DNA from: Trametes villosa
Taxonomy: Eukaryota > Basidiomycota > Agaricomycetes > Polyporales > Polyporaceae
NCBI GenBank assembly: GCA_002964805.2
Contig: PUDQ02000043.1
Coordinates: 1-64,000 of the forward strand
Direction of reading: 5' to 3'
DNA length: 64,000 bases
The notes under the pieces were generated by a model, which worked only from the letters and a program-made list of their open reading frames with translations, ran no database searches and was not told where the DNA came from. Numbering within the stretch: the stretch's first letter is position 1; the number at the start of each line of letters is the position of its first letter. Shown piece by piece: positions 15,487 through 57,499 of this stretch. Made by a program: the position numbers and the translations under genes.

Positions 15487-16892
15487 GAATGTCTGTCATC
15501 CAAGCAGTGAGAGCCGAGGGAGCCTGCAGCGACGACTGGGGGTCAGCCATCGCTCGAGCGTTGCCCGCCGACGTCTCTAGGAGCTGGGTCGATCGGACAG
15601 GCCGTCACGGCGATGTGGACCGGTAGTCGCCGTCTGCAGAGAAGAGGGCGGGGGACGCGGGGAAGGACTATGTCGCTCACCTGGGTTCCCTCCCGGGGAG
15701 GATGGGAGGTGGCGGTGGGGCGGGCGCACGCAGGCATGCGGTTTGACCGCCTGGAAGCGGCAGTCGGAGGTGTCGGCGCGCCATCGCTGCCGCCGGGAGG
15801 CATGCTCGCACGCTAGCACGCTTGCACAAGCATACGCCTCCGCCTGCCCGCGTGTGCGCGCCGGTGGAGGAGAGGGGGCGCTGCAAGGGCGTCAGCGCGG
15901 TCAGAAAAGAGGCATGTGCGGGAGATGAAAACGCACCGAGTAAGGGTCAAAGGAGCATACACGGGAGGTACTGGCGTGCGCCCGTGTGCACGCCTGCCGG
16001 GTGACACAACACCAGACAAGCGGCGGAGGAGCTCGGATGGGGCCAGGGAGGCGGAGGCCGCGCGGAGGAGGGCTTCGCGCGCGTGCGCGGGGCTTGAGCG
16101 AGCCGGACAGGCCGTCCACGGCGCGATGGCTGGTGATGAGCAGCTCCCGCGCACGCCTGCCGGGTGACACAACACCAGACAAGCGACGGAGGAGCTCGAA
16201 TGGGGCCAGGGAGGCGGAGGGTGCGCGGAGGAGGTCTTCGCGCGCGGCCGCGCGGGGCTTGAGCGAGCCGGACAGGCCGTCCACGACGCGATGGCTGGTG
16301 ATGAGCAGCTCCTGCGCACGCCTGCCGGGTGATACAACACCAGACAAGCGGCGGGGGAGCTCGGATGGGGCCAGGGAGGCGGAGGCCGCGCGGAGGAGGG
16401 CTTGAGCGAGTCGGACAGGCCGTCCACGGCGCGATGGCTGGTGATGAGCAGCTCCCGCGCACGCCTGCCGGGTGACACAACACCAGACAAGCGACGGAGG
16501 GGCTCGGATGGGTCCAGGGAGGCGGAGGAGGTCTTCGCGCGCGGCCGCGCGGGGCTTGAGCGAGCCGGACAGGCTGTCCACGACGCGATGGCTGGTGATG
16601 AGCAGCTCGAGAGGTGTAGCTGCGTGCGGAAGCCGCCGGCGCCGTCTCCAGAAAGAGAGAACACAAGGAAGAGAGAGCATCGAGGGATGAAGAGGCCCAA
16701 CCGCGGCGATAGCCACGGAGGGGTGTGGACGAGGACGAGGAGAAGGTGGGAGGACGAGAGAGAGCGACGCGGGCAAAAATGCCAAGTCCAGAGCGCCCGC
16801 GTGCACAGCCACCACGTGGCGGCAGGCTCCGCGCGCGGCGTCGTCCTTGTCGCTCTCTCTATAGCAGTCCTCCGTCGTCTCCTCGTCCTTGG
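15487..16892 (+). mobile_element. Foldback-family copy: one arm, loop and start of the other arm
   Basis: Matches the palindrome's left arm from about 3386 to the loop, then continues a little way into the opposite arm (16845-16892). It lacks the outer 1.3 kb of the arm. The internal tandem array at about 15990-16610 has variable unit lengths, with CGCCTGCCGGGTGA markers near 15992, 16155, 16320 and 16460. Divergence from the palindrome is visible but modest. Confidence 0.8.
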
Positions 16893-36548: not shown

Positions 36549-38781
36549 GTGCTTAGGATATAACTATACTTGCACTGACAACTTTGCAACCGAGGTGCAC
36601 GGACTTCCGAGTGCCATATACAAGAAACATATCTCAATTCACGACATGACGGTCTCCTCGTTGTCTTATGCCTACCCGGACTAGGGAAATGCCGCCTCTT
36701 CCGGCGGCCGTAACCTTGTGTGCGGGGTTTGCTTAGATCTCGCAAGCTGCACTGTGACGGCCGGGAACGAACAGTATCCTTGGTGAGCGCAAAATGCGAC
36801 TTAGCGCCGCCAATAGCGGAGTCACTACCCGACAAGAGGCGGTGTTGGCATGATTGTTGTCTTACCAGTAATTGCCCCTGTCCTCCGAGAATGCCAGCCT
36901 GGTCCTCGCGCCGGTGCTCGTCACTGCGCTCGATCTTAAAGCGCGTGTTCGCGGCGTTCTGGCCGACCTAGCTCACGGTGTGGTTGATTGACCCATACGC
37001 GCGCTGTGCGCCTCAAGGTGCACTGTGGAAAGGGGCGGCGTATCAGCCGCAGACACGGAACCATGACCAGGACAGAGCAATTCAGGATGCGGTAGTAGAG
37101 CTAAAATGTTCAGTATTTTCAGTATTTACAGCGAGGGTCGCCCCCGTGGAGCAGTGCATAGTGCGCATACAGAAATTGTGGGTCAATGACTTTGGACATT
37201 GCCCCGGAGCCAGGGCCATCGCTCCCCGCATACAGGTCTCTGACGCACGCGGGGGTAGAGACACCCTCTAAGGAATCATTGCGTCTGCGGGATGCTGTAA
37301 TTTCGTGTGCAAGAGCTGTTCAGATCTCCACATGCAGATTTGATACGAGCTCTCAATAGAGGAAAGGAGAGAGATCTACGCTCCGGACGACCCGGACGGC
37401 AAGCTTGAGGTGCAGAGGACAGCCGGTGATAGGTGTTCGCACATCCTGACCCCATGGAAACTGCCTGAATGCGACCGAACATGTTGAGCTTGAATCGCCG
37501 CAAGACTCGCAGAGAGCGTGTGCCGTGATGTGCCCTTGCTTTTGCAAAGTGTTATGGGAAGGGGTCGGACGTGCAAGTGGACGTCTGTCTGGGGTGGGCC
37601 TGTGGCGAACTCGGAGCGCGAAGCAACGCAGCGCGGTTGCGTGGCGCGCGTTTGCACGCGCAGACGCCGCCGCACGCCCGCTCTGCACTAATCGGAAGCC
37701 GCTCCAGAGTATCCGGGAGCCTCAGGGACGTGCGTGTTGTTGACCCCCCCTATGGCGTGAACAGCACACCACGAAGAGGGCAACATCCCAAAGTTGTCGC
37801 AGGCGTTCACAACCAGCAGCGCCCGAGAGCTACAGAACATACAAGTGTTTTCGCCGAGAGGCGCGGCGCGCGTTTCTGTCGCGTCAGGCTCAAATCTGCT
37901 ATGAAACTGCGCAAAACTGTTAGGTACTTCTCTGAGCAGATCGATGTGTGGCTCACGGGGTACTTTCGTCTCGGTTTGTGTGTCTCTGAAGTGCCGTTCA
38001 CGCAGCTTTAAAGCTGGCCGCGGGCCGCGGGCGCATTGCTAAGCCGGCAGCGCAGGGTGAGTGCATGGCCCATCGGCGTATGTGCGTGCGTTCCGTATAC
38101 ACCCTAATCGTTTGTAGGGCATAGGGTGGCCAGCAGCCGATGCATAGCGAGAGCGACAGGATTGAAGACGTCGTCGGCGCCCACCGTCAGTAGCGTCCCT
38201 TAGAGCGCGTGCGCGTCAAACGCTGTGTAACGACTCGCTCTCCCCTTTCGCTCCCCCTTTCACTTTCCTTACTATGCTTTACTTATCCGACTTGTTCCCG
38301 CTTACTAGTCGCTCCTTATCCCCTCGCCTTTCTCCCTCTCTTTAGCAAGCCTTTCCCACCACGCTCCTTACTAAGATTTCCGACAGTCTCGTGACCAGTG
38401 TACGAGTATATAAGGACCCCCGCCTGTAGGGCGAAGGCCCCAGTGTTCTAGCAATCGACAGAGCCCGAGGGGCAATCATTGCGGGTGCCGCAAACTCCAA
38501 CTACCCGTGGAGGGTCCCCTCCTTGGTTCTCGGGGTCTGCCTTATGTAATTCGCCATATATAGCAAAACATCCCCCAAGTATGGTGCGCACACGCGCGAG
38601 TGATATCATTCGCAGTCTCGAGTCGCAACGAACTACTAGTAATCCATTCCAGCCTGAAGACCCGCTTTGACCTCCCTATGTTGCTGTCGTGAGGCTTGTA
38701 GCTATCAGGTTGCCTGCTAAGAATGCGCCTCAATCAGCATTTCCGGGCCTGTCTTCGTGTGTGAATAATTTTGAGACTTAC
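36549..38781. other. No supported gene
   Basis: Short frames on both strands. A TATA-like GTATATAAGG sits at 38406-38415 upstream of a small frame starting MVRTRASDIIRSLESQR (38581-38670). An intron-like GTGAGTG...TTTGTAG lies at 38056-38118. None can be tied to a gene. Confidence 0.35.
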
Positions 38782-39000
38782 TGAATCCGATGTAGTAGTA
38801 GCCTGCTCCAGGCGTCCAAAGGCCTCGCGGAGGGCGACCTTAGCCTCCTTGCGAACCTTTCGCTTGTATAGTTTTTCGCAACCCTTGGAAAGGAGGTGGG
38901 TCTGGAGGTTTCTTGGGTGCCCAAAGCGACTGAGTTTTACGACTCTGTCGCAGCGCGGACAAGTGGCAACAAGTTTGCCCTCCTCGTTGAAGTCCGCCAT
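38782..39000 (-). CDS. Zinc-finger-like exon, partial gene
   Basis: Reads MADFNEEGKLVATCPRCDRV and then FGHPRNLQTHLLSKGCEKL: a CxxC pair followed by spaced His/Cys ligands, as in small BED- or C2H2-like fingers. A Lys/Arg-rich helix follows, ending TTTSDS at a GTAAGT donor (38781-38776). An upstream in-frame ATG at 39081 would add 27 residues. No downstream exon is recognised, so this is the 5' exon of a gene or a relic of a mobile element. It lies beside the hairpin at 39178. Confidence 0.45.
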
Positions 39001-39177
39001 CACCGTGGCCGAGTCGTGACTGCCGATGGTTACATAGATGCTGTGTGCTTGAGGCTGAATGCGAAGAGGCTTGGTGGGCATGGCTCGACTTGCAGTACTG
39101 GCCTCAGATTAAGAGCTATATAATGTTTTTGACATGAGGAATCCTCGTGGACTCTGATGTATTCGCGTAGACTCGAA

Positions 39178-39259
39178 ACCAGTCGATCGGGACGCACGTG
39201 GAAGCCGCCTTTCGGGGGGAGCGGAGTGTGAAAGGCAGCTTGCGTCCCTAACGACTGGT
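39178..39259. repeat. Imperfect hairpin abutting the transposon's left end
   Basis: ACCAGTCG..GGGACGCA at 39178-39195 is the reverse complement of TGCGTCCC..CGACTGGT at 39241-39259 apart from two central mismatches. Inside, GCCGCCTTTC pairs with GAAAGGCAGC, leaving a short G-rich loop. The right foot overlaps the first three bases of the transposon's terminal repeat. Confidence 0.75.
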
Positions 39260-39322
39260 CAAACTGGGCCTCGGTTTGGGGGGGTGTCCGGATTTGGTAC
39301 CCCGTGTGAAAACGTCCTTAGC
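39257..39322 (+). repeat. Left terminal inverted repeat, copy 1
   Basis: Pairs with 47326-47391. The conserved inner block starts GGTACCCCGTG and ends CGTCCTTAGC; the middle holds a run of seven G followed by TGTCC in both ends. Confidence 0.9.
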
Positions 39323-39412
39323 GTATGCGCGCGTTTCTCACTGTGGAAAGAATCGACCGCCGCTCGAGTGCCCTCGCACGCGTATACACCAGTCAGGGAG
39401 CAGAGAATATAT

Positions 39413-42400
39413 TTATATATAGTCATCAATATCCAGAGAGGGATTCTCCTCCTCTGCGAACACGTCGCGCGGCTCATACTCGTCGTCGTCGAACCACTGC
39501 CAGAGCTCCTCTTCGTCATCCTCACATACCGGGTTGTCTACTTCGAGCGGAGCCGCTTGCGGGACAGCACTGACCTAAGGCAAGACTTCAGAGAACGTCA
39601 GCATAGATCAATGTAAAGGCACATACCTGACTGGCACCAGACGTGACCGGGACTGTCGAAGTACTGGGACCGTCAACAGGTGACACCGCCGGTGACGTCG
39701 TTGTGGGAAGGTCTACAAGCGGGGTCATCCGGCGTCGCTGCTGAAGCTGCTTGAACGCCCGGTTGTAGTCGCTCAAGGGACCCTGGAGCTGATTGTGCCC
39801 TGTGTTGACGACATTTGGGATTACACCGGCGTTGAGGTCGTTTGGATCAACGACACGGCCCTTCTCGACTGCGAAGACGCCATTCGTGCGAAGCGAGTCG
39901 CAGACCATAGCGAGATCCTTGTCGAGATCCGGGGAACGATGCTTGGACCCCAGCCTCGCGCCTAGCGTACTGTTGACCTGGAGGGCAAGCTGTCGGAGTA
40001 GCGATATGCACGGCGATATCATGGTGAGCCAGTCCCATGACGCGTTGCTCCCGTTGGCCTTATAGATCACCTGTAGACTGGTCAGTCATTGGTAAGCCCA
40101 GGGAATGGAAACAAACCTTGATCCAGAAGTTCATGTGTTCTTGCAGTAGGTCAACGGGTACCCAAGCGTTCGCCTTCCCAGTGGGATTGACAAGCCAGTT
40201 CTTGATCATGATATTGCTAAAATAACCACACCACTCAATTCAGCTACACCAGACATGAACAGAGTGACATACCGTAGAGGCTTGGGCCACACGTGAGTGA
40301 GGTTGTGTACGAGATGCAGGAGTTCGTGAGCATACTTCGTGCGACCGCTGCCTCTATACATGAGCGCGAGGAGCTTGAGGACACGGATGATGCGCCCGGA
40401 GTAGCCACCCTTGATCGCGTCGGTAAACTCGCGAAGAACGAGCGCGTCTCGTATGAACAGACAGGCGTTCTCAAAAACCATGTCACCGTGCTTGAGCTTG
40501 ATGCGCGTTGCGTCCGTTGCGTCCGACGTTGCGTCCGTTGCGTCCTTCGTGGTCGTCGCGGCCATCGCGTCCGTCGCGGTCGTCGTGGCCGTCGCTTGCG
40601 TTGCTATCCTCGCGGCCGTCGCATTCGTCGCGCTCGTTGCGTGCGTCGCGCTCGTTGCGTGCGTCGCGCTCGTTGCGGCCATGGCGCTCGTCGCGGCCTT
40701 CGCGTGCGTCGCGGCCTTCGCGTGCGTCGTGGCCGTCGCGTGCGTCGTGGCCGTCGCGTGCGTCGTGGCTGTCGCAGCCGTCGCGTGCGTTGCTATCCTC
40801 GCGGCCGTCGCATTCGTCGCGGTCGGCGCGGTCGGCGCGGTCGGCGCATTCGTCGCGGCGGTCGCGGGCGGCGCATCCGCCGCGGAACCCGCTCCAGAGC
40901 GCGATGCAGCCGAACCCACGCCACTATCGCCCGGCATGTTCGCAATCTCCTCATCGCGAGCCTTACGCAGGGCTGAGACCTCAGCTGGGTTGACAAACTT
41001 GAGCATGACCTGGTGCACATGCTGGCGGAAGTCTTGAAATGTGGCTTCTTCTGCATACTTGGCGAGAGGCTGGCCACAGACGAGCTCGAGACATTGGAGG
41101 AGACAGCCGGAGAGGCTAGTGAAGATGAGATCTCGACATGTACGATAGGGGGGTAGAGACGTCAGGACGATAGGCTTGCGGTCGAGGACGGTGTTCAGGT
41201 TGTGGAGAGAGGCGGTTCGCGGACTGGTAGTACCCCAGTGAGTCTCGATAATACCATGCGTGAGTGCCATCTGGTGATGAAAGAACCCAGGCCCAAAGAC
41301 CGCGAATGCATAGGAGCGAGCGAGGCTCTCGTGTCCTGAGCGGTTGGCGATTAAGGTGCGAAGACGGGAGATGGAGAGCTGGTCACCGAAGATAGGGCGT
41401 ACGATACCCGCGAACTTGGTGGTACCGATGTCGAAGCCGAGTCCCTTGAAGATCGTGTCGACGACCTCGGCGTTCCCAGTGATACTCGATTCGTCTATGT
41501 TCATGGCGGGTAGGGGATAGACGTCCGTCCGGTGCAGGGGAATCTGCTCGTCAGTTCCGGGGAGGCAGGCAGCAACGTCCGACCGGAAGCGGGCGAACAG
41601 TTCAGTCCGAAGAACCAGATCCCGGAGGACGGTGTGCTCAAGAGATGCCTGGAAGAGCTGAGCTTCAGACGAAGATTGCCGGATGTCTTTAGCACTAAGC
41701 GGCGGGGCACGATCGAAGGCGGCCAGGAGATCTGCGGTCTGCATGTCCTCGGCGCGGGCACCGTGCAGGGGAAAGATGGTCGCGCAGGTGCCGTTCTCTT
41801 GGGAGTCCTTCCGCCCGAGAATCTGTTCAGCGATTCGAAACATCATGTTGATGTTATCGTATACATGCCCGCACACGGATCCCTGAGCACACGTGCGAGC
41901 AGCTGAGCAGCAGGAGATAGAAATGCGTCTGAGCAAGCCGGCGCCGCGATGGAGGAGGCAAGAGAGCACGTTGGGCGCTTGAGATGCGTCTGCTTCCCCC
42001 GCGTCGCCGATTGCGTCTCGATCGCGTCTGGCACCAGCTCCTCGTACCCCGTTCGCCTGAGCACCAACCGGCTCGCTGTCGCTCCTGTCTTCTTCATCCA
42101 AAGAGTCAACGGACTCAGTCTCCGTGTCCGTGTCCGACTCCGACTCGTCTCCATCAGGCTGCCAGTCGGGGTCCGAGTCTTCATCATCACTCTCATCATC
42201 GCTCATCTGCTCGGGCTCCGGCTGTTCTTCCCCTCCTTCCGTATGCTTTGCATCGTCTTGCGGCGTGTCTGCTTGAGCCTGGGAGCTGCTTCTTGCGATA
42301 CTGGGATAGCTACTGCACAGTCCAAGGCTTGAGAGGACCGAGAGTACTTGTCGCTGGGCCCCGGTGGCGTATAGGTACAGTCCAACAATATGCTTCACAT

Positions 42401-43431
42401 AGCTATTGTTCTGACTACGCTCGCCTAGGAGGTCGACGAGGGCAGTACCCACCCGCTAGATAGTGAATATGTGAGCCCTCAGCATAGTAGTATAGCATAC
42501 ATTATGTACTTACCCTATCCTTCTTCTCGGCACGCCTTAGTGCAGCCCTCTCCTCCTGCTCCGTCTTTCCAGGCTTGTTTGCTACTCCCCTCTGACGCCG
42601 GGTGGTGCAGAACTTGTTCATGAGGGTGGCCATGGATGGACAGAGGATGTGCAGGCGTTCGTGGATCTTGCGCAGGTCGAAATCCAGTACGAAGGACTCC
42701 GAGATTGGCATGCGTCGCGTGAGTAGCACCCCGCTTGATGTCGCCGCACCTGCTTCTCTACTGACCACCTTGCCCATATACTCCAGCACCCAGTCGTGCA
42801 CCTTCCGTCGGCCTCGCCGAGAATTGCTCGTCGTCCACATGTCGAGGACCCTCTCCACCTGCCCTGCCCTATCGAACATCCCGTAGTGACGGACGTCAGC
42901 ACGACCTGAGCGTGGCCGGCACACCCATTCCACGAAGTCCCCCCAGCTCGCTCCGATTGCCTTCAGCTCCTGTAGGACGCGCACGAAGCACGCTTCTCGA
43001 GCTTCGGCGGCCCGGTGTTCGGCTTGGGCATGTGCGACGGCGTTAGCCTCAGCGTTGGCACGAAGGCGTGCGCTCTGGATGGCCTCGCGCTCCGCCTGTT
43101 GCTCGGCAAGGGTTTGTAACCGTTTCTTCTGCGCCTTGCGCTGAATGACCTGAGCTAACGTTTCATGTTCATTAGCAACGCGAGGCGAAGTTGGAGCCGG
43201 TCCGGAGTCGCTGGATGAATGACCGTCTAGAGCAGGACCGGCCGTGGAATCGGGGCTGCCCTCGGCTTCGGCTTCTACGCACGTACCACCGTCCGCTGGA
43301 GGCGCGTCTTCTTGCGGAATCGGTGAAAGCGACATGGGGGACAGAGCTTGAGGCGAAAATTGAGGGGAGGATGGCGGGAGATTGCTCGAAGGCGAGAAGG
43401 TAAAGAGTTCGTCCAGATTAGAATCTGACAT
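39413..43431 (-). CDS. DUF6589-domain protein, candidate transposase, copy 1
   Basis: Five exons (43431-42514, 42455-40273, 40216-40117, 40070-39627, 39574-39413) total 3,807 nt, in frame, encoding 1,268 aa. All introns are GT-AG, 46-58 bp except the fourth junction of similar size. The N-terminal 300 residues are Ser/Pro-rich, then charged with an Ala/Glu/Arg helix. An acidic Asp/Glu/Ser block follows around residues 390-440. The DUF6589 region carries YDNINMMFRIAEQILGRKDS (about 506-525), GDQLS (about 663-667), FHHQM (698-702) and HGIIETHWG (706-714). It closes with NFWIKVIYKANGSNASWDWL and an acidic C-terminus. An Ala/Thr-rich tract lies at 40520-40860. DUF6589 is a basidiomycete-rich family of unknown function. 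A transposase role is inferred from location between inverted repeats. An upstream ATG (43572) would add 47 residues. Confidence 0.8.
40515..40870 (-). repeat. Ala/Thr-coding minisatellite inside the DUF6589 gene
   Basis: Degenerate tandem units built on GCGTGCGTCGCGGCC-like blocks encode runs of ATHAT, ATTHA and AATSA. Frames stay open on the opposite strand too (Ala/Val- and Arg-rich), which is a by-product of the repeat. The tract is identical in copy 2 (48718-49073). Confidence 0.8.
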
Positions 43432-43634
43432 AGAGGCTGACTCTCGTGAGGTATAGCAGCTTTTGGATAGGACTCGGATTGCACGTCGGCGGGTTGTGAG
43501 CAGTACAGGGTTCTCGTCGAGTGCTGAGCCAGGTCGCCGCGCTGAAGGGCGCCTGTGCGACCTCGGCGCCACAATCTACACTTCTTGCTCTCCTCTCTCA
43601 CTCGCAGTCTTGGATACCACCTCCCGACCCACCT
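43432..43634. promoter_or_regulatory. Shared divergent promoter region, copy 1
   Basis: About 203 bp separate the chosen start codons of the DUF6589 gene (minus) and the helicase gene (plus), so the two are probably co-expressed from one bidirectional region. A pyrimidine-rich CTCTCCTCTCTCACTCGCAG lies just before the helicase start. No TATA box is obvious. Confidence 0.5.
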
Positions 43635-46600
43635 ATGGCTCGTCGTCTCAAGAAGGCCAAGTCTACTGGCCTGTGGTCTTCTTCGAAAGCAACTGCAGGG
43701 CCTCAAGCACGTCCTCGACTCAGCCCCGACGACATCCAGCTGCTGGCGGCGAAAATGCGGGAAGCATTCCATTGGGATGCAGAACCTAAAGACTTCCAGA
43801 TCGCGGCGGTCCAGGCTCAAATCGAGGGGGTGGATATGATGGTACAGGCTCCGACAGGTGCAGGGAAGACCGCGCTGGCAGCAGGCCCTCATGTATGGCC
43901 CGGCAACGAGAAGAAGTTCACCATCATGGTGTGCCCGCTGCTGTCATTAGAAGAAGAAATGGTACGGTACCATTCCGCTGAGCTCGTCTGGTTCTCGTCG
44001 CTCATAGTGTCACAGGTTCAGTCGTTTGATACGGACTACGGCCTCAAAGCAGTTGCGCTGAACAGCAGCAACGGTGCCTGTTCCCCGCTCGTCATCAAGG
44101 CACGTTGCCTGACCCTACGCTACTCGCGCAGACACGCTAATTCATGCTACTCACATAGGACATCCTCAGTTTGAAATATCAAATCATCCTCGTGTCTCCG
44201 GAGATGCTCCAGTCGCGCTCGTTCATGGACCGCGTTCTCCGAAACTCTTCGTTCATGCGGCATATGATCTCTATGTTTGTTGATGAGGCGCATTGTATCG
44301 CACACTGGGGAGCTGACTTCCGAAAGAAGTACGGCTCTTTGGGGAAAATCCGGTCATTCCTTCCTCGGGGAACACCCGTCATCGCGGTGACCGCGACGCT
44401 CACCGCAAAGGTCCGCAGGACCATACATCACGTTCTCCTTTTCGGGCAATCCGAAAAACCATCTCGCTTCATCAACAAAGGGAACGACCGCCCCAACGTC
44501 TCCATTGTCGTCCGAGCGTGCGAGCATCCGCTCAACTCCTACGCTGACACTGCTTTCATCATCCCTCCCATCGTTCGGAAGATCACCGACATTCCCAAAA
44601 CCTACGTTTACGTCGACAATATCGCTGTAGGTAGCGAGATCATCGATTACCTGAACGAACAACTCGAAGCTCGTCGTCGAACCTCCGTCGCAGCCGCCAG
44701 CTCAACCTCGGGACCATCCTCGCCCTCTCCCCATCCTCAAGCCGTCACCCACGAGCTTCCTTGTGGCATCATCCGACCGTTCAATGCTACGCTCTCTCAG
44801 GAGTACCGCACTTTGGCGATGGAGCACTTTCGTCGCGGAAACATACGCATACTGGTCTGCCCAGATGCCGCGGGAATGGTTCGTACTAGTACTACTACGC
44901 CACGTTGCGGCACGCCCGCATACTACGTTACTGACGATCTGAACTTGCGCCTAGGGCTGCAATATACCCGACATCGATCGCGTCGTTCAGTGGAAGCTCC
45001 CAGCCACCTTCTCAAACCTCGTCCAGCGGGCGGGCCGCGCTGCGAGAGGCCGTGGACGTCAGGGTCTAGCGGTATTGCTCGTCGAAAGGTCAGCTTACAA
45101 CACAGACCTCGTCAGCGAGGGCAGTTCCACAACAAGTACCAAACGAGGGAAGGGGGTCAAGAGAGGAGGGAAGGGCTCGGAGACGTCAGGCGTAGACCCG
45201 GAGGGCGGCAAGCGCGATGCCAAGGAGACCCGTGAGTACGCCAAAGCTCATGGCGTAAACTGCGGGGGGTCGACGAGGGCCGATGAAGTGCCCAGTGGCT
45301 CTCCGCCACGACTTGACGCGGAGAACTCTCCCGACGAGGGCTTGCTTGCCTTCGTACAAAGCACAGCTTGCCGACGTCAGCTTTGGGCACAGGCGTTTGA
45401 GAACCCGACCAACACAGGTACGTAGCTGATACTAAATCCCGATACGCCGGCTCATGTTGCTCGCGGCTCGTAGACCCGACGGTGCCATGCTGCGACATAT
45501 GCCATCCCAAACTACTGGACCGAACACGACCGGGACCTGCTCCTTCTTCACGCAAGGCCAAGAATGCCAAACGAGGCCTGCCTGACCTCGACGCGCAGCG
45601 GAAGCTCCGCTCGTGGCACGAGTCCATCTTCGCGCGTAATCATCCATGGGCGCAGTTTGACGAAACCGCTATCCTGGACGACGAACTCATCACGCAGTTG
45701 ACGACCCTCGGGCCCTTGTCTAAGGCCCAGATCTCCGCCGCTTTGCAGGATAAGTGGGCATTCTGGGACGAGTACCAGGACGAACTCACCGTGTATGTGC
45801 AATCCCTCAACGTCAAGTTCACCCCCCTCCCATCGAAGCCTCGCGCCGGGCCCACTATTTCGAAGCCGCCGCCGCCGCCGCCGAGCATCTCACATGCCCA
45901 GCCTGCCTCCCACTCCTCCACACCCGCTGCTACTAGTAGTACCGTGGCACAGGCTCCTCAGCCCGCCGCGCTCGCCGCGCCTTCAGCTACTACCGCCCTC
46001 TACGCCCCTCTAACCGCCGCTAGTACCCCGACCGCCCGTTGGCACCCCTATCCCCTCCCGCACGCTTCCCCTCTGACTCCTACCCCTGCGGTGAACGTCG
46101 GCGCGCCCTACGTGTCGGCGCAGACATCGCGGACACATCCGAACACCAAGCGACCGCGTCCTGACCACGACGGTGTCGAGCCGCCCACCGCGTGCGCTGG
46201 CAACTACGTAGTGCCGCAAGGTCGCAGCCTTGCAGGTGAGATCGACATGCCTGCATCTAAGCGGACACGAATACCACCCGAACGCACGACGGGAGATCCC
46301 TATGCGCAAACTACGGTGCACCCCTCGCAATATCTCTTTGACAACGAGCTCGCCGGCTTGTACCTCGCCGCAAGTGCGCAAGCAGTGGGTGACACACCGC
46401 TGTCAGCAGCCAGAAGGCCTACGACGGTCCCTCGTCCGGCCCCTGAAACGCCTACAAACCTGCATGGCCGACACCCCGTACACACCCCATCACGCTCACT
46501 ACAAGCATCCTTCCATGCGTCTTCCCCCCTCGCTCTATCGCACGCCGTCGCCCCCATGAACAGGACACCACACTCGGTGCACCCATACTCCGCAGACCTC

Positions 46601-47221
46601 CCGGTGCAGCACACAGCCTCAGCTTACGACAGCGACTACGGCGCGCCGCCCGCGCAACGTGCGCCTTCCATGTTCGCGCCGCCGCATGCGCCGCCGGCTC
46701 CCCTCCATCATAACTACCACCAACCCGCTACCAGCCAGCCATGGACCCCTCTCACCGAAATGGCGCACACCGACGCGTACCCGTCGACCGCGAATCCCGC
46801 TTACGAGGAACCTGTTCAGTGGCCTTCCGCGCACAGATATGCCCCAAACCAATCCTCCCCCATCTCGGCTTGCTCGTATCAATCTCGTCCGCATCCTACC
46901 AGGGCTTGGACAGACTCGCACCATCCCGCTCCTGGGCCAAGCCGCGTCTTCGCGCCGCCTCTGAGCACGTCGCAGTTCCCTCATAGTACTGTACCCCCGC
47001 ATAGCGTTCCTGCGACACCATCTTCCGACGCCGCGGGGAGCTTGCAGTACGGTGACTATCCTCAACAAGCCTCTTTCTCTCCGGCACCCCCGCTCGGCGC
47101 CACCTACCCTCCGGACTCCGTCCACATGCCAGCTGATCCACAGTCATACTATCCCGAGCACGCTCAACGCATTCCCCAGGCCCCTTCTTCTTATGATAGT
47201 ACTTACTACACATTCAATTAG
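43635..47221 (+). CDS. RecQ-like DNA helicase, copy 1
   Basis: Exons 43635-43961, 44016-44099, 44159-44878, 44955-45417 and 45474-47221 total 3,342 nt, in frame, encoding 1,113 aa. Motif I is APTGAGKT (residues 72-79). Motif II is DEAH (179-182) within VDEAHCIAHWGADFRKKYG, and motif III is AVTATLT. Motif IV lies near TYVYVDNIAVGSE, motif V is ILVCPDAAGMGCNIPDIDRV and motif VI is QRAGRAARGRGRQG (about 401-414). A Cys-rich stretch with PCCDICHPKLLDRTRP follows, like the RecQ zinc region. The last 450 residues are Pro/Ala/Ser/Thr-rich and apparently disordered. The second intron begins GC instead of GT. RecQ enzymes are 3'-5' ATP-dependent helicases. Here it may process transposition intermediates (inference). 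Confidence 0.85.
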
Positions 47222-47325
47222 GTGTGGATTCAGTCTTCGTCACTGTCAAATATGTTGTATATGTTGTGCCCTTGCAACGCGCCAGGAGTGGATCGGTATT
47301 TCTCTAGAGAGGAAATCGTCGCTCA

Positions 47326-47391
47326 GCTAAGGACGTTTTCACACGGGGTACCTAATTGGGACACCCCCCCTCAACCGCACCCAGTTTGACC
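47326..47391 (-). repeat. Right terminal inverted repeat, copy 1
   Basis: Reverse complement of 39257-39322 except for a handful of central positions; ends CCCAGTTTGACC. Confidence 0.9.
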
Positions 47392-47459
47392 AGCCGTTCG
47401 GACATCCTCGAGTGTGGCGCGCCGGAGTCCGAATTACCGAACTGCTGGGAACGAGCCTA
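47392..47459 (+). repeat. 68-bp spacer made of LINE coding sequence
   Basis: Identical to 55595-55662, which is the start of the downstream LINE fragment. One frame contains PNYRTAG, the NYR motif near the start of LINE reverse transcriptases. Its presence between the two transposon copies shows that the duplicated unit is transposon plus 68 bp of LINE (period 8,203 bp). Confidence 0.85.
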
Positions 47460-47525
47460 GGTCAAACTGGGCCTCGGTTTGGGGGGGTGTCCGGATTTGG
47501 TACCCCGTGTGAAAACGTCCTTAGC
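47460..47525 (+). repeat. Left terminal inverted repeat, copy 2
   Basis: Identical to 39257-39322. It lacks the hairpin found immediately outside copy 1, so that hairpin is not part of the element. Confidence 0.9.
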
Positions 47526-47615
47526 GTATGCGCGCGTTTCTCACTGTGGAAAGAATCGACCGCCGCTCGAGTGCCCTCGCACGCGTATACACCAGTCAGG
47601 GAGCAGAGAATATAT

Positions 47616-50600
47616 TTATATATAGTCATCAATATCCAGAGAGGGATTCTCCTCCTCTGCGAACACGTCGCGCGGCTCATACTCGTCGTCGTCGAACCAC
47701 TGCCAGAGCTCCTCTTCGTCATCCTCACATACCGGGTTGTCTACTTCGAGCGGAGCCGCTTGCGGGACAGCACTGACCTAAGGCAAGACTTCAGAGAACG
47801 TCAGCATAGATCAATGTAAAGGCACATACCTGACTGGCACCAGACGTGACCGGGACTGTCGAAGTACTGGGACCGTCAACAGGTGACACCGCCGGTGACG
47901 TCGTTGTGGGAAGGTCTACAAGCGGGGTCATCCGGCGTCGCTGCTGAAGCTGCTTGAACGCCCGGTTGTAGTCGCTCAAGGGACCCTGGAGCTGATTGTG
48001 CCCTGTGTTGACGACATTTGGGATTACACCGGCGTTGAGGTCGTTTGGATCAACGACACGGCCCTTCTCGACTGCGAAGACGCCATTCGTGCGAAGCGAG
48101 TCGCAGACCATAGCGAGATCCTTGTCGAGATCCGGGGAACGATGCTTGGACCCCAGCCTCGCGCCTAGCGTACTGTTGACCTGGAGGGCAAGCTGTCGGA
48201 GTAGCGATATGCACGGCGATATCATGGTGAGCCAGTCCCATGACGCGTTGCTCCCGTTGGCCTTATAGATCACCTGTAGACTGGTCAGTCATTGGTAAGC
48301 CCAGGGAATGGAAACAAACCTTGATCCAGAAGTTCATGTGTTCTTGCAGTAGGTCAACGGGTACCCAAGCGTTCGCCTTCCCAGTGGGATTGACAAGCCA
48401 GTTCTTGATCATGATATTGCTAAAATAACCACACCACTCAATTCAGCTACACCAGACATGAACAGAGTGACATACCGTAGAGGCTTGGGCCACACGTGAG
48501 TGAGGTTGTGTACGAGATGCAGGAGTTCGTGAGCATACTTCGTGCGACCGCTGCCTCTATACATGAGCGCGAGGAGCTTGAGGACACGGATGATGCGCCC
48601 GGAGTAGCCACCCTTGATCGCGTCGGTAAACTCGCGAAGAACGAGCGCGTCTCGTATGAACAGACAGGCGTTCTCAAAAACCATGTCACCGTGCTTGAGC
48701 TTGATGCGCGTTGCGTCCGTTGCGTCCGACGTTGCGTCCGTTGCGTCCTTCGTGGTCGTCGCGGCCATCGCGTCCGTCGCGGTCGTCGTGGCCGTCGCTT
48801 GCGTTGCTATCCTCGCGGCCGTCGCATTCGTCGCGCTCGTTGCGTGCGTCGCGCTCGTTGCGTGCGTCGCGCTCGTTGCGGCCATGGCGCTCGTCGCGGC
48901 CTTCGCGTGCGTCGCGGCCTTCGCGTGCGTCGTGGCCGTCGCGTGCGTCGTGGCCGTCGCGTGCGTCGTGGCTGTCGCAGCCGTCGCGTGCGTTGCTATC
49001 CTCGCGGCCGTCGCATTCGTCGCGGTCGGCGCGGTCGGCGCGGTCGGCGCATTCGTCGCGGCGGTCGCGGGCGGCGCATCCGCCGCGGAACCCGCTCCAG
49101 AGCGCGATGCAGCCGAACCCACGCCACTATCGCCCGGCATGTTCGCAATCTCCTCATCGCGAGCCTTACGCAGGGCTGAGACCTCAGCTGGGTTGACAAA
49201 CTTGAGCATGACCTGGTGCACATGCTGGCGGAAGTCTTGAAATGTGGCTTCTTCTGCATACTTGGCGAGAGGCTGGCCACAGACGAGCTCGAGACATTGG
49301 AGGAGACAGCCGGAGAGGCTAGTGAAGATGAGATCTCGACATGTACGATAGGGGGGTAGAGACGTCAGGACGATAGGCTTGCGGTCGAGGACGGTGTTCA
49401 GGTTGTGGAGAGAGGCGGTTCGCGGACTGGTAGTACCCCAGTGAGTCTCGATAATACCATGCGTGAGTGCCATCTGGTGATGAAAGAACCCAGGCCCAAA
49501 GACCGCGAATGCATAGGAGCGAGCGAGGCTCTCGTGTCCTGAGCGGTTGGCGATTAAGGTGCGAAGACGGGAGATGGAGAGCTGGTCACCGAAGATAGGG
49601 CGTACGATACCCGCGAACTTGGTGGTACCGATGTCGAAGCCGAGTCCCTTGAAGATCGTGTCGACGACCTCGGCGTTCCCAGTGATACTCGATTCGTCTA
49701 TGTTCATGGCGGGTAGGGGATAGACGTCCGTCCGGTGCAGGGGAATCTGCTCGTCAGTTCCGGGGAGGCAGGCAGCAACGTCCGACCGGAAGCGGGCGAA
49801 CAGTTCAGTCCGAAGAACCAGATCCCGGAGGACGGTGTGCTCAAGAGATGCCTGGAAGAGCTGAGCTTCAGACGAAGATTGCCGGATGTCTTTAGCACTA
49901 AGCGGCGGGGCACGATCGAAGGCGGCCAGGAGATCTGCGGTCTGCATGTCCTCGGCGCGGGCACCGTGCAGGGGAAAGATGGTCGCGCAGGTGCCGTTCT
50001 CTTGGGAGTCCTTCCGCCCGAGAATCTGTTCAGCGATTCGAAACATCATGTTGATGTTATCGTATACATGCCCGCACACGGATCCCTGAGCACACGTGCG
50101 AGCAGCTGAGCAGCAGGAGATAGAAATGCGTCTGAGCAAGCCGGCGCCGCGATGGAGGAGGCAAGAGAGCACGTTGGGCGCTTGAGATGCGTCTGCTTCC
50201 CCCGCGTCGCCGATTGCGTCTCGATCGCGTCTGGCACCAGCTCCTCGTACCCCGTTCGCCTGAGCACCAACCGGCTCGCTGTCGCTCCTGTCTTCTTCAT
50301 CCAAAGAGTCAACGGACTCAGTCTCCGTGTCCGTGTCCGACTCCGACTCGTCTCCATCAGGCTGCCAGTCGGGGTCCGAGTCTTCATCATCACTCTCATC
50401 ATCGCTCATCTGCTCGGGCTCCGGCTGTTCTTCCCCTCCTTCCGTATGCTTTGCATCGTCTTGCGGCGTGTCTGCTTGAGCCTGGGAGCTGCTTCTTGCG
50501 ATACTGGGATAGCTACTGCACAGTCCAAGGCTTGAGAGGACCGAGAGTACTTGTCGCTGGGCCCCGGTGGCGTATAGGTACAGTCCAACAATATGCTTCA

Positions 50601-51634
50601 CATAGCTATTGTTCTGACTACGCTCGCCTAGGAGGTCGACGAGGGCAGTACCCACCCGCTAGATAGTGAATATGTGAGCCCTCAGCATAGTAGTATAGCA
50701 TACATTATGTACTTACCCTATCCTTCTTCTCGGCACGCCTTAGTGCAGCCCTCTCCTCCTGCTCCGTCTTTCCAGGCTTGTTTGCTACTCCCCTCTGACG
50801 CCGGGTGGTGCAGAACTTGTTCATGAGGGTGGCCATGGATGGACAGAGGATGTGCAGGCGTTCGTGGATCTTGCGCAGGTCGAAATCCAGTACGAAGGAC
50901 TCCGAGATTGGCATGCGTCGCGTGAGTAGCACCCCGCTTGATGTCGCCGCACCTGCTTCTCTACTGACCACCTTGCCCATATACTCCAGCACCCAGTCGT
51001 GCACCTTCCGTCGGCCTCGCCGAGAATTGCTCGTCGTCCACATGTCGAGGACCCTCTCCACCTGCCCTGCCCTATCGAACATCCCGTAGTGACGGACGTC
51101 AGCACGACCTGAGCGTGGCCGGCACACCCATTCCACGAAGTCCCCCCAGCTCGCTCCGATTGCCTTCAGCTCCTGTAGGACGCGCACGAAGCACGCTTCT
51201 CGAGCTTCGGCGGCCCGGTGTTCGGCTTGGGCATGTGCGACGGCGTTAGCCTCAGCGTTGGCACGAAGGCGTGCGCTCTGGATGGCCTCGCGCTCCGCCT
51301 GTTGCTCGGCAAGGGTTTGTAACCGTTTCTTCTGCGCCTTGCGCTGAATGACCTGAGCTAACGTTTCATGTTCATTAGCAACGCGAGGCGAAGTTGGAGC
51401 CGGTCCGGAGTCGCTGGATGAATGACCGTCTAGAGCAGGACCGGCCGTGGAATCGGGGCTGCCCTCGGCTTCGGCTTCTACGCACGTACCACCGTCCGCT
51501 GGAGGCGCGTCTTCTTGCGGAATCGGTGAAAGCGACATGGGGGACAGAGCTTGAGGCGAAAATTGAGGGGAGGATGGCGGGAGATTGCTCGAAGGCGAGA
51601 AGGTAAAGAGTTCGTCCAGATTAGAATCTGACAT
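47616..51634 (-). CDS. DUF6589-domain protein, candidate transposase, copy 2
   Basis: Same five-exon structure as copy 1, shifted by 8,203 bp (exons 51634-50717, 50658-48476, 48419-48320, 48273-47830, 47777-47616). The predicted protein is identical, 1,268 aa, with GDQLS, FHHQM and HGIIETHWG intact, so both copies could supply function. Confidence 0.8.
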
Positions 51635-51837
51635 AGAGGCTGACTCTCGTGAGGTATAGCAGCTTTTGGATAGGACTCGGATTGCACGTCGGCGGGTTGT
51701 GAGCAGTACAGGGTTCTCGTCGAGTGCTGAGCCAGGTCGCCGCGCTGAAGGGCGCCTGTGCGACCTCGGCGCCACAATCTACACTTCTTGCTCTCCTCTC
51801 TCACTCGCAGTCTTGGATACCACCTCCCGACCCACCT
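51635..51837. promoter_or_regulatory. Shared divergent promoter region, copy 2
   Basis: Identical to 43432-43634; separates the divergent start codons. Confidence 0.5.
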
Positions 51838-54800
51838 ATGGCTCGTCGTCTCAAGAAGGCCAAGTCTACTGGCCTGTGGTCTTCTTCGAAAGCAACTGCA
51901 GGGCCTCAAGCACGTCCTCGACTCAGCCCCGACGACATCCAGCTGCTGGCGGCGAAAATGCGGGAAGCATTCCATTGGGATGCAGAACCTAAAGACTTCC
52001 AGATCGCGGCGGTCCAGGCTCAAATCGAGGGGGTGGATATGATGGTACAGGCTCCGACAGGTGCAGGGAAGACCGCGCTGGCAGCAGGCCCTCATGTATG
52101 GCCCGGCAACGAGAAGAAGTTCACCATCATGGTGTGCCCGCTGCTGTCATTAGAAGAAGAAATGGTACGGTACCATTCCGCTGAGCTCGTCTGGTTCTCG
52201 TCGCTCATAGTGTCACAGGTTCAGTCGTTTGATACGGACTACGGCCTCAAAGCAGTTGCGCTGAACAGCAGCAACGGTGCCTGTTCCCCGCTCGTCATCA
52301 AGGCACGTTGCCTGACCCTACGCTACTCGCGCAGACACGCTAATTCATGCTACTCACATAGGACATCCTCAGTTTGAAATATCAAATCATCCTCGTGTCT
52401 CCGGAGATGCTCCAGTCGCGCTCGTTCATGGACCGCGTTCTCCGAAACTCTTCGTTCATGCGGCATATGATCTCTATGTTTGTTGATGAGGCGCATTGTA
52501 TCGCACACTGGGGAGCTGACTTCCGAAAGAAGTACGGCTCTTTGGGGAAAATCCGGTCATTCCTTCCTCGGGGAACACCCGTCATCGCGGTGACCGCGAC
52601 GCTCACCGCAAAGGTCCGCAGGACCATACATCACGTTCTCCTTTTCGGGCAATCCGAAAAACCATCTCGCTTCATCAACAAAGGGAACGACCGCCCCAAC
52701 GTCTCCATTGTCGTCCGAGCGTGCGAGCATCCGCTCAACTCCTACGCTGACACTGCTTTCATCATCCCTCCCATCGTTCGGAAGATCACCGACATTCCCA
52801 AAACCTACGTTTACGTCGACAATATCGCTGTAGGTAGCGAGATCATCGATTACCTGAACGAACAACTCGAAGCTCGTCGTCGAACCTCCGTCGCAGCCGC
52901 CAGCTCAACCTCGGGACCATCCTCGCCCTCTCCCCATCCTCAAGCCGTCACCCACGAGCTTCCTTGTGGCATCATCCGACCGTTCAATGCTACGCTCTCT
53001 CAGGAGTACCGCACTTTGGCGATGGAGCACTTTCGTCGCGGAAACATACGCATACTGGTCTGCCCAGATGCCGCGGGAATGGTTCGTACTAGTACTACTA
53101 CGCCACGTTGCGGCACGCCCGCATACTACGTTACTGACGATCTGAACTTGCGCCTAGGGCTGCAATATACCCGACATCGATCGCGTCGTTCAGTGGAAGC
53201 TCCCAGCCACCTTCTCAAACCTCGTCCAGCGGGCGGGCCGCGCTGCGAGAGGCCGTGGACGTCAGGGTCTAGCGGTATTGCTCGTCGAAAGGTCAGCTTA
53301 CAACACAGACCTCGTCAGCGAGGGCAGTTCCACAACAAGTACCAAACGAGGGAAGGGGGTCAAGAGAGGAGGGAAGGGCTCGGAGACGTCAGGCGTAGAC
53401 CCGGAGGGCGGCAAGCGCGATGCCAAGGAGACCCGTGAGTACGCCAAAGCTCATGGCGTAAACTGCGGGGGGTCGACGAGGGCCGATGAAGTGCCCAGTG
53501 GCTCTCCGCCACGACTTGACGCGGAGAACTCTCCCGACGAGGGCTTGCTTGCCTTCGTACAAAGCACAGCTTGCCGACGTCAGCTTTGGGCACAGGCGTT
53601 TGAGAACCCGACCAACACAGGTACGTAGCTGATACTAAATCCCGATACGCCGGCTCATGTTGCTCGCGGCTCGTAGACCCGACGGTGCCATGCTGCGACA
53701 TATGCCATCCCAAACTACTGGACCGAACACGACCGGGACCTGCTCCTTCTTCACGCAAGGCCAAGAATGCCAAACGAGGCCTGCCTGACCTCGACGCGCA
53801 GCGGAAGCTCCGCTCGTGGCACGAGTCCATCTTCGCGCGTAATCATCCATGGGCGCAGTTTGACGAAACCGCTATCCTGGACGACGAACTCATCACGCAG
53901 TTGACGACCCTCGGGCCCTTGTCTAAGGCCCAGATCTCCGCCGCTTTGCAGGATAAGTGGGCGTTCTGGGACGAGTACCAGGACGAACTCACCGTGTATG
54001 TGCAATCCCTCAACGTCAAGTTCACCCCCCTCCCATCGAAGCCTCGCGCCGGGCCCACTATTTCGAAGCCGCCGCCGCCGCCGCCGAGCATCTCACATGC
54101 CCAGCCTGCCTCCCACTCCTCCACACCCGCTGCTACTAGTAGTACCGTGGCACAGGCTCCTCAGCCCGCCGCGCTCGCCGCGCCTTCAGCTACTACCGCC
54201 CTCTACGCCCCTCTAACCGCCGCTAGTACCCCGACCGCCCGTTGGCACCCCTATCCCCTCCCGCACGCTTCCCCTCTGACTCCTACCCCTGCGGTGAACG
54301 TCGGCGCGCCCTACGTGTCGGCGCAGACATCGCGGACACATCCGAACACCAAGCGACCGCGTCCTGACCACGACGGTGTCGAGCCGCCCACCGCGTGCGC
54401 TGGCAACTACGTAGTGCCGCAAGGTCGCAGCCTTGCAGGTGAGATCGACATGCCTGCATCTAAGCGGACACGAATACCACCCGAACGCACGACGGGAGAT
54501 CCCTATGCGCAAACTACGGTGCACCCCTCGCAATATCTCTTTGACAACGAGCTCGCCGGCTTGTACCTCGCCGCAAGTGCGCAAGCAGTGGGTGACACAC
54601 CGCTGTCAGCAGCCAGAAGGCCTACGACGGTCCCTCGTCCGGCCCCTGAAACGCCTACAAACCTGCATGGCCGACACCCCGTACACACCCCATCACGCTC
54701 ACTACAAGCATCCTTCCATGCGTCTTCCCCCCTCGCTCTATCGCACGCCGTCGCCCCCATGAACAGGACACCACACTCGGTGCACCCATACTCCGCAGAC

Positions 54801-55424
54801 CTCCCGGTGCAGCACACAGCCTCAGCTTACGACAGCGACTACGGCGCGCCGCCCGCGCAACGTGCGCCTTCCATGTTCGCGCCGCCGCATGCGCCGCCGG
54901 CTCCCCTCCATCATAACTACCACCAACCCGCTACCAGCCAGCCATGGACCCCTCTCACCGAAATGGCGCACACCGACGCGTACCCGTCGACCGCGAATCC
55001 CGCTTACGAGGAACCTGTTCAGTGGCCTTCCGCGCACAGATATGCCCCAAACCAATCCTCCCCCATCTCGGCTTGCTCGTATCAATCTCGTCCGCATCCT
55101 ACCAGGGCTTGGACAGACTCGCACCATCCCGCTCCTGGGCCAAGCCGCGTCTTCGCGCCGCCTCTGAGCACGTCGCAGTTCCCTCATAGTACTGTACCCC
55201 CGCATAGCGTTCCTGCGACACCATCTTCCGACGCCGCGGGGAGCTTGCAGTACGGTGACTATCCTCAACAAGCCTCTTTCTCTCCGGCACCCCCGCTCGG
55301 CGCCACCTACCCTCCGGACTCCGTCCACATGCCAGCTGATCCACAGTCATACTATCCCGAGCACGCTCAACGCATTCCCCAGGCCCCTTCTTCTTATGAT
55401 AGTACTTACTACACATTCAATTAG
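51838..55424 (+). CDS. RecQ-like DNA helicase, copy 2
   Basis: Same five-exon gene as copy 1 (exons 51838-52164, 52219-52302, 52362-53081, 53158-53620, 53677-55424), 1,113 aa. The only change seen, at 53963, is synonymous in an Ala codon of the DKWAFW segment. All helicase motifs and the GC-AG second intron are retained. Confidence 0.85.
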
Positions 55425-55528
55425 GTGTGGATTCAGTCTTCGTCACTGTCAAATATGTTGTATATGTTGTGCCCTTGCAACGCGCCAGGAGTGGATCGGT
55501 ATTTCTCTAGAGAGGAAATCGTCGCTCA

Positions 55529-55594
55529 GCTAAGGACGTTTTCACACGGGGTACCTAATTGGGACACCCCCCCTCAACCGCACCCAGTTTGACC
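55529..55594 (-). repeat. Right terminal inverted repeat, copy 2
   Basis: Identical to 47326-47391. An open frame runs from it into the LINE, so the first 12 residues of that frame are transposon, not LINE. Confidence 0.9.
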
Positions 55595-57499
55595 AGCCGT
55601 TCGGACATCCTCGAGTGTGGCGCGCCGGAGTCCGAATTACCGAACTGCTGGGAACGAGCCTACCGGGTCCCCTGCCCCGGCAGGTCCCGGCAGCGTCCGA
55701 CCGTGCCCCGGGCGTCTATTTACCTGCGCCACATCTGGAGATGGATCTCGTCTTCACCGCGTCCTTCACCAAGCGGATTCCGAAGCGGCCACCGTACGTT
55801 CAACAATGCCTTCATCCTCCGGGCAGCCATCGAGAAGGCTCGGGCGCTGGGGAAATCCCTGTATATCGTGTTCCTCGACCTCGCGAACGCTTTCCCCTCC
55901 GTGGATCAGCCCACTCTCTGGGCAAAGCTAGCGCGCTGGGGAGTGGCGGGCCCGCTAGTCGACTGGCTGCGCATGCTGTATGCACGCCTCCAGTACATGG
56001 TGCGCTTCGGCGGCGAGACGTCCGAATGCTACCGCGCGCTCATGGGAATCTTGATTGGGGACCCGGCCTCGCCGATCCTGTGGATCCTGTTCCTCTCCGA
56101 CTTCGACCTCCGCCCCCACGCTGACGATGTGATCCTCGACGGCGACTATCGAGTGTCCCACCTGGAGATTGCGGACGACATGGCTCTAGCCAGCATGTCG
56201 TCCCATGGAATGCAGGATAAGGTCGACCAGAGCAAGGACTATGGGGCGACCTCTTGCCTCCTAGTCAACGTCTCCAAAACGCTGGCGCACATCCAAGGCC
56301 CGCTCCCAGACCCGCTGCCCCACCTCGTGCTGTACGACGAGCCGCTGCGTTATGTGGACGTCGCAACGTACGTCGGCATGTCCTTCTCCTCCACCGCACG
56401 CGACATCTTCCTCCCCCACTACGAAGCGAAAGAAGCCGCAGCGCGCAAAGTGGCAAACGCGTGCTTCGCGCTCGAATCCTACATCGGACCTTTGCCCCCG
56501 GCGATTGCACTGCAGCTCTACCGCTCGCACATCGACCCGCACCTCACGGGTGGGTGTGAGATCGCGCTCGATGTCCGCCCCGGCGCGCTAGACGGTCTGG
56601 AGGATGTCCAAATCACGTTCCTACGCCGCGCACTGAACATCAGCAAGAGGTCACAGATCGCGCCCCTCTTCAGCGAAACGGGCATCTGGCCCCTGCGGTA
56701 CCGCCGCTTCGCGCTCGCTCTGCGCTACCTCCTGTATGTGATCACGGCGAAGCCGACACTACCCTTCGCAGCCCTGCGCGAGAGCTGGTCGATTGCGACC
56801 GGCGCAGACCCTCGCCCAACATGGTGGAGCGACCTCCAACTCGCAGCGTCGCTACTACCGGTCCCGCTGGAGATCCCCCTGCGCGAGTGGCCCACACCCG
56901 AAACGGTCCAACGCTACCTCGCTACGCTGCCAGAGCTCGTCGCCAGACACATACACGACTCTATCTTCGCGTCGAAGCGCCTGCCAGTGCTGCAGAACCG
57001 GCTCCGCTACGACACGTCGAAGACGGCCGGCACGCTACCGAACGTCTGCACTATGCGGGACTACCTGTTACTGCCTCGCCCGCAACACCGCGCGGCACTC
57101 GCGCTCCTCCTCTTCTCCGAACATCCCCTAGCCATTGAGCGGGGGCGCAGAGAGCCCAACAGAAGACCGCGCGAGGAGCGCCGGTGCCGGTGGTGCCGTG
57201 AGGACTGGGCGGTCGAGGACGAGACGCACGCGCTATTGGAGTGCGAGGGCGACGCCGTCGCGAAGCTCCGTGGCGAATTCCTGGCCTCTGTCTTCGCCGC
57301 CGTCCCCTCCCTGCGCACCGCCCACTTCAGGTTGCAGAGCAGCCAGTTCCTCGACATGCTCCTGCGCGGGAAGACGACGATGCCCCTGCTCGCGGCGCAC
57401 ACTGCGCGTGTATTAGAACTCTGCGGTGAAACTCCCCAATACCTCGGCGAAACAGGCTCCACTGCGGAGCCGGCCGACGCGGCCTCAAGTAGGCCTTGA
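55595..57499 (+). pseudogene. Non-LTR reverse transcriptase, N-terminally truncated
   Basis: The long frame contains the fingers/palm region FRSGHRTFNNAFILRAAIEK, LYIVFLDLANAFPSVDQ (first catalytic Asp), the GDPASPILWILFLSDF block and IADDMALAS, the ADD motif with Ile where Tyr or Phe is usual. The thumb follows, then a C-terminal CRWC...HALLEC zinc knuckle and a stop at 57499. The stretch before FRSG appears frameshifted: the NYRTAG motif is in another frame. Endonuclease and 5' sequences are absent, so it is not autonomous. The body is otherwise open, suggesting fairly recent death. Confidence 0.8.

What the first reader, a model, noticed from the sequence alone, without database searches (positions are those of the whole stretch)
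39257..47391. Candidate new transposon type: terminal inverted repeats around a DUF6589 gene and a RecQ-like helicase
Seen: about 66-bp inverted repeats enclose exactly two divergent, intact, multi-exon genes, and the unit is present twice. Established: DUF6589 has no assigned function and is abundant in basidiomycetes, and RecQ-like genes are often amplified in these genomes. Inference: DUF6589 is the transposase of a large two-gene DNA transposon that brings its own helicase. I do not know of a described superfamily with this gene pair.
Basis: partly seen in the sequence, partly recalled or inferred. Interest (0 to 1): 0.92.

Follow-up and report, generated by a model that had tools for sequence, protein, structure and literature searches.

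The report
Helicase-carrying fungal transposon, probably AcademH
The two genes are parts of a real mobile DNA element in a fungus, a transposase and a RecQ-like helicase; it very probably belongs to a kind already described (AcademH), and its main use is that it gives a likely function to a widely annotated fungal gene family of unknown function.

Summary
The 66-bp inverted repeats are internal; related copies put the true ends at TAGACTCG (39168) and CGAGCCTA (47459, 55662). The window holds one element plus a head-to-tail second copy (8203-bp period, one synonymous difference) that lacks the left 89 bp. Both genes have open five-exon models: DUF6589 (1268 aa) and RecQ-like (1113 aa).

Mobility is shown at other loci. 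Elements with the same ends at C3:3748015-3756080 and C25:44136-51407 have perfect 9-bp target duplications; C25 has a precise empty paralogue. A second lineage (convergent genes, 8-bp duplications) has empty copies too. In this genome 12 of 16 DUF6589 loci have a RecQ match within 6 kb. The predicted DUF6589 fold best matches Hermes, P-element and RAG/Transib proteins.

Helicase-bearing Academ elements (AcademH: 9-10-bp duplications; Basidiomycota included) are in print, so a new superfamily is unlikely. Homology of DUF6589 to the Academ transposase could not be tested: no reference sequence was at hand. The window array shows no matching target duplication of its own; how it arose is unresolved.

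The parts
39168..55662 (.). whole array: one element with both ends (39168-47459) followed head to tail by a second copy without the left 89 bp (47460-55662)
39168..39175 (+). left terminus TAGACTCG; the flank to its left is a repeat whose copy at C10:647206 matches up to 39167 (plus a two-base chance match) and then diverges
39178..39259 (+). left-end palindrome between terminus and inner repeat
   Evidence: fold z -3.6
39413..43431 (-). DUF6589 gene, putative DDE transposase, copy 1; exons 43431-42514, 42455-40273, 40216-40117, 40070-39627, 39574-39413; 1268 aa
43635..47221 (+). RecQ-like helicase gene, copy 1; exons 43635-43961, 44016-44099, 44159-44878, 44955-45417, 45474-47221; 1113 aa
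47326..47391 (-). inner inverted repeat, right, copy 1
47390..47448 (-). right-end palindrome, copy 1 (not better than shuffles in this element, z 0.2; better in three related right-type ends)
47452..47459 (+). right terminus CGAGCCTA of copy 1, joined directly to the inner repeat of copy 2 at 47460
47460..47525 (+). inner inverted repeat, left, copy 2 (no terminus or palindrome outside it)
47616..51634 (-). DUF6589 gene, copy 2
   Evidence: copy of 39413-43431 at +8203
51838..55424 (+). RecQ-like gene, copy 2 (one synonymous difference)
55529..55594 (-). inner inverted repeat, right, copy 2
55655..55662 (+). right terminus CGAGCCTA of copy 2 and of the array

Best explanation
An autonomous DNA transposon of the AcademH type in a basidiomycete related to Trametes and other polypores, with a later tandem copy. 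SHOWN: related elements share its ends (TAGRCTCG, an end-specific palindrome, an inner inverted repeat), insert with 9-bp target duplications, and one has a precise empty paralogue; DUF6589 and RecQ-like genes travel together. INFERRED: DUF6589 is a DDE transposase with an RNase-H core and a helical insertion domain (putative triad D279, D437, E688 in homologue P0001); it binds the inner repeats, pairs the ends, cuts at TAGRCTCG and joins the element to cuts staggered by 9 bp. The RecQ-like helicase is a partner that most plausibly unwinds the end palindromes or processes strands during excision, joining or gap repair. The window's tandem junction lies exactly at the right terminus of copy 1, which hints at one-ended joining onto a sister copy (speculative).
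Against: No direct comparison with an Academ transposase was possible. The window array has no matching duplication (left GTATTCGCG, right CCGGGTCCC). Foldseek gives no PDB match at E <= 0.001 (best Hermes, 0.017), sequence search none at E <= 1, and triad geometry was not measured. The helicase scores below the curated recQ_fam cut-off (144 against 219.8 bits). The palindrome at the window's right end folds no better than shuffles. The second lineage's 8-bp duplications lie outside the reported 9-10 bp. 4 of 16 DUF6589 loci have no RecQ match nearby.
Confidence: 0.8

Rival explanations
1. A superfamily separate from Academ that paired a DDE transposase (DUF6589) with a RecQ-like helicase on its own.
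For: DUF6589 homology to Academ is untested; one lineage makes 8-bp duplications; no held paper names DUF6589.
Against: A helicase-bearing Academ lineage with 9-10-bp duplications in Basidiomycota is in print and fits gene content, duplication length and host.
Confidence: 0.12
2. KolobokH, or a MuDR-type element, with a helicase.
For: KolobokH encodes a RecQ helicase and is fungal (PMC9587614); MuDR elements make duplications of about 9 bp (recalled).
Against: Duplications are 8-9 bp, none TTAA; no conserved C/DxxH between D437 and E688 in 59 homologues; the helicase is a separate divergent gene; only DUF6589 passes its cut-off in the Pfam scans of the transposase exons and four homologues.
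Confidence: 0.03
3. The head-to-tail second copy in the window is an assembly artefact, or a product of plain recombination rather than of transposition (concerns the tandem only, not the element).
For: Nearly identical 8.2-kb repeats on a 65,286-base contig, and outer flanks that come from two different repeats.
Against: The inner junction falls exactly at the right terminus of copy 1, and the copies differ at one base.
Confidence: 0.3
4. Two host genes that happen to be neighbours, enclosed by chance repeats.
For: DUF6589 and helicase genes are annotated as ordinary genes in other fungi.
Against: Shared ends, target duplications and empty sites at other loci; pairing at 12 of 16 loci.
Confidence: 0.01

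Closest known systems
AcademH, Academ superfamily (Kojima 2020, Mob DNA 11:15; paper not held, known here through passages of other papers)
   Same: Helicase-encoding DNA transposon of fungi including Basidiomycota; RecQ helicase reported in Academ; 9- or 10-bp duplications
   Different: Transposase homology, terminal sequence and gene order could not be compared; a second DUF6589 lineage in this genome makes 8-bp duplications
KolobokH
   Same: RecQ helicase, fungi (PMC9587614)
   [quoted passage not shown] none of these is seen here
hAT (Hermes) and P-element transposases
   Different: No C/DxxH signature; 7-11% sequence identity; no helicase in those elements (recalled)
Helitron
   Same: A transposon that brings a helicase
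   Different: Here there are target duplications, inverted termini and a RecQ-like helicase; that Helitrons lack duplications and use a Pif1-type helicase is recalled

Membership tests
AcademH | encodes a (RecQ) helicase beside the transposase | tested here: met
   RecQ-like gene at 43635-47221; paired with DUF6589 at 12 of 16 loci; below the curated recQ_fam cut-off
AcademH | 9- or 10-bp target duplications, lineage of the window element | tested here: met
   three related insertions with perfect 9-bp duplications; the window array itself has none that can be assigned
AcademH | 9- or 10-bp target duplications, second DUF6589 lineage (C10:1626479, C49:113923) | tested here: not met
   8 bp in 2 of 2; this lineage is not filed as AcademH
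AcademH | transposase homologous to Academ DDE transposases | not testable with these tools
   no Academ reference sequence or profile; Kojima 2020 not held; the DOI tried for Muszewska 2017 was not held
AcademH | found in fungi including Basidiomycota | tested here: met
   named DUF6589 and RecQ homologues are from basidiomycetes such as Trametes and Ganoderma (assignment of these genera recalled)
KolobokH | TTAA 4-bp duplication | tested here: not met
   five assigned duplications of 8 or 9 bp, none TTAA
KolobokH | C/DxxH between second D and last E | tested here: not met
   no such conserved columns between D437 and E688; rests on the putative triad
[quoted passage not shown]
   separate, divergent gene in the window
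MuDR / hAT / P | C/DxxH between second D and last E | tested here: not met
   signature as given in PMC9587614
DDE transposases in general | RNase-H-like fold with helical insertion | tested here: met
   16 of the 16 best VIA-align rows are DDE recombinases; Foldseek weak, E 0.017
DDE transposases in general | catalytic acidic triad | tested here: inconclusive
   D279, D437, E688 conserved and placed as expected in the secondary structure; distances not measured

The most novel reading that the evidence does not exclude
DUF6589/RecQ elements are a superfamily of their own, separate from Academ, with two gene orders (divergent, convergent) and two duplication lengths (9 and 8 bp), in which end-specific palindromes between an 8-bp terminus and the inner inverted repeat are the substrate of the element's own RecQ-like helicase.
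Probability: 0.12. Interest if true: 0.7.

Novelty: new member of a known kind. Interest (0 to 1): 0.4.

Why it matters
DUF6589 proteins are annotated as hypothetical host proteins in many basidiomycete genomes, often on the same contig as a gene annotated as a helicase. If both are parts of a transposon, apparent expansions of DUF6589 and RecQ genes in these fungi should largely be counted as mobile DNA. Open gene models with exact ends give a defined substrate for asking why some cut-and-paste transposons carry a helicase.

Tried and rejected
Empty site for C3:3748015: only its own two halves and one partial 77% repeat match. Joined window flanks: the left flank matches a repeat at C10:647206, the start of the right flank a different repeat at C83:458740, and no listed match joins the two, so no duplication could be assigned to the window. 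Telomere-linked element: no TTAGGGTTAGGG in the window. DUF6589 against solved-structure sequences: no match at E <= 1. DUF6589 in proteins longer than about 1310 aa (fusions with other domains): none of 688 candidates, inconclusive because shared exact words are needed. Ends for C1:3.26M, C10:3.15M, C3:2.93M and the second C25 pair: nothing that stands out from chance in the scan, which also gives chance pairs at good loci. Papers: RecQ + terminal inverted repeats + Basidiomycota gave one paper on Helitrons, seen as a listing only; DUF6589 and the InterPro number that I recalled for it gave none.

Full report
WHAT WAS CHECKED. GGTCAAACTGGG lies at 39257(+), 47380(-), 47460(+) and 55583(-), against 0.28 expected. 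Inverted arms 39247-39349 and 47299-47401 are 76% complementary over 103 nt; the 66-bp core is 88% identical. The window compared with itself at an offset of 8203 shows one difference between 39257 and 47459; it is synonymous in the RecQ-like gene.

TRUE ENDS. Related ends were found on C14, C3 and C45. A short derivative at C3:4.08 Mb, split by an insertion with identical 307-bp direct repeats (an LTR retroelement by its form), shares the outer sequence as far as TAGACTCG on one side and CGAGCCTA on the other and has a perfect 9-bp duplication, ACATCGAGG. The complete element C3:3748015-3756080 (8066 bp) has the same termini and AAAGGGAGC on both sides; C25:44136-51407 (7272 bp) has GGTCTTAGG. 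The copy on C14 lacks the outermost left part, and C45 is a disrupted relic; no duplication was assigned to either. The window's left end is at 39168: its flank matches a repeat at C10:647206 up to 39167 plus a two-base chance match. Between the 8-bp terminus and the inner repeat each end has a palindrome. It folds better than shuffles in the A-type end of four of four lineage-I elements (z -2.5 to -3.6) and in three of four G-type ends (z -1.9 to -3.1), but not in the window's G-type end (z 0.2).

MOBILITY. Joined flanks of four insertions were searched in the genome, which scores only the best candidates. For C25, one paralogous stretch, C10:3175807-3176148, aligns without a gap at the junction, with one mismatch in the duplicated 9 bp. 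For the lineage-II element C49:113923-120968, 23 copies of its target repeat at 96-98% run through the junction. Two of the 23 were aligned base by base; both hold the 8-bp target once, one of them with a mismatch in it. The flanks of C10:1626479 and of the C3 derivative found only themselves; those of C3:3748015 found themselves and a partial repeat match.

GENE PAIR. The 32 DUF6589 matches merge into 16 loci and the 39 RecQ-family matches into 29. Of the 16, 12 have a RecQ match within 6 kb: 5 divergent and 7 convergent, the window counting twice; 4 have none. Many of the RecQ matches are weak, and both lists are lower bounds. In other species the best 120 DUF6589 rows (of 144 hits) and the best 120 RecQ rows (of 391 hits) were seen. 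I used the 75 DUF6589 rows with an organism name and a contig and dropped 45. Of these 75, 48 share a contig length with a RecQ row, in 22 species, and 27 do not; among contigs of 100 kb or less, 11 of 30 do. Adjacent locus tags do, in three genomes: GSI_01525/01526, EVJ58_g10195/g10196, NM688_g6203/g6204.

WHAT IT IS. A RecQ helicase in Academ is stated in PMC3627910 (passage). AcademH with 9- or 10-bp duplications is stated in PMC10045372 (passages). PMC10799480 (passages) reports low-copy AcademH in Basidiomycota, Ascomycota and Mucoromycota. PMC6416283 (passages) reports fungal Academ copies with DEAD-helicase and recQ_fam domains, frequently annotated as host genes. Kojima 2020, the defining paper, is not held and was not read. 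The features tested fit AcademH; transposase homology is the missing test. KolobokH (PMC9587614, passages) is not met on duplication, signature and gene layout.

WHAT STAYS OPEN. The window array shows no matching target duplication: both outer junctions are sharp but lie in different repeats. The inner junction joins the exact right terminus of copy 1 to a point 89 bp inside the left end of copy 2. One-ended joining to a sister copy, recombination between two insertions, and misassembly are possible; none is shown. The genome also holds several DUF6589 lineages about 23-27% identical to one another, with two gene orders and two duplication lengths.

Noticed in passing
window 55663-57499: The right flank is an open frame with reverse-transcriptase-like sequence (LINE-like by eye) that abuts the right terminus of the array exactly; it seems to lack its N-terminal part.
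   Followed up: partly
window 38460-39167: A repeat with a small open frame with CxxC and His residues (38734-39108, minus strand), 96% identical to a copy at C10:647206; no Pfam match.
   Followed up: partly
window 40506-40874 and 48709-49077: A 9-bp-based low-complexity expansion inside the DUF6589 main exon of both copies; absent at this place from the homologues that I printed.
   Followed up: no
window 3960-4494, 4887-5410, 15988-16608: GC-rich tandem repeats with units of about 143-165 bp, two of them alike in opposite orientation; related sequence recurs at about 36.1-36.5 kb and 58.3-58.8 kb.
   Followed up: no
L023/L024 (G000:C3:4071000-4090999): An insertion of about 9.5 kb with identical 307-bp direct repeats sits inside the short derivative of this element, so it is probably young.
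   Followed up: partly
G000:C24:191476-191597 and C58:44366-44471: Two inverted copies of lineage-II ends lie about 100-120 bp apart at each place: possible very short non-autonomous elements.
   Followed up: no
G000:C107:22195-23843 and C33:1777140-1778788: Two very similar high-scoring RecQ genes without DUF6589 nearby; probably host genes and possibly haplotype duplicates in the assembly.
   Followed up: no
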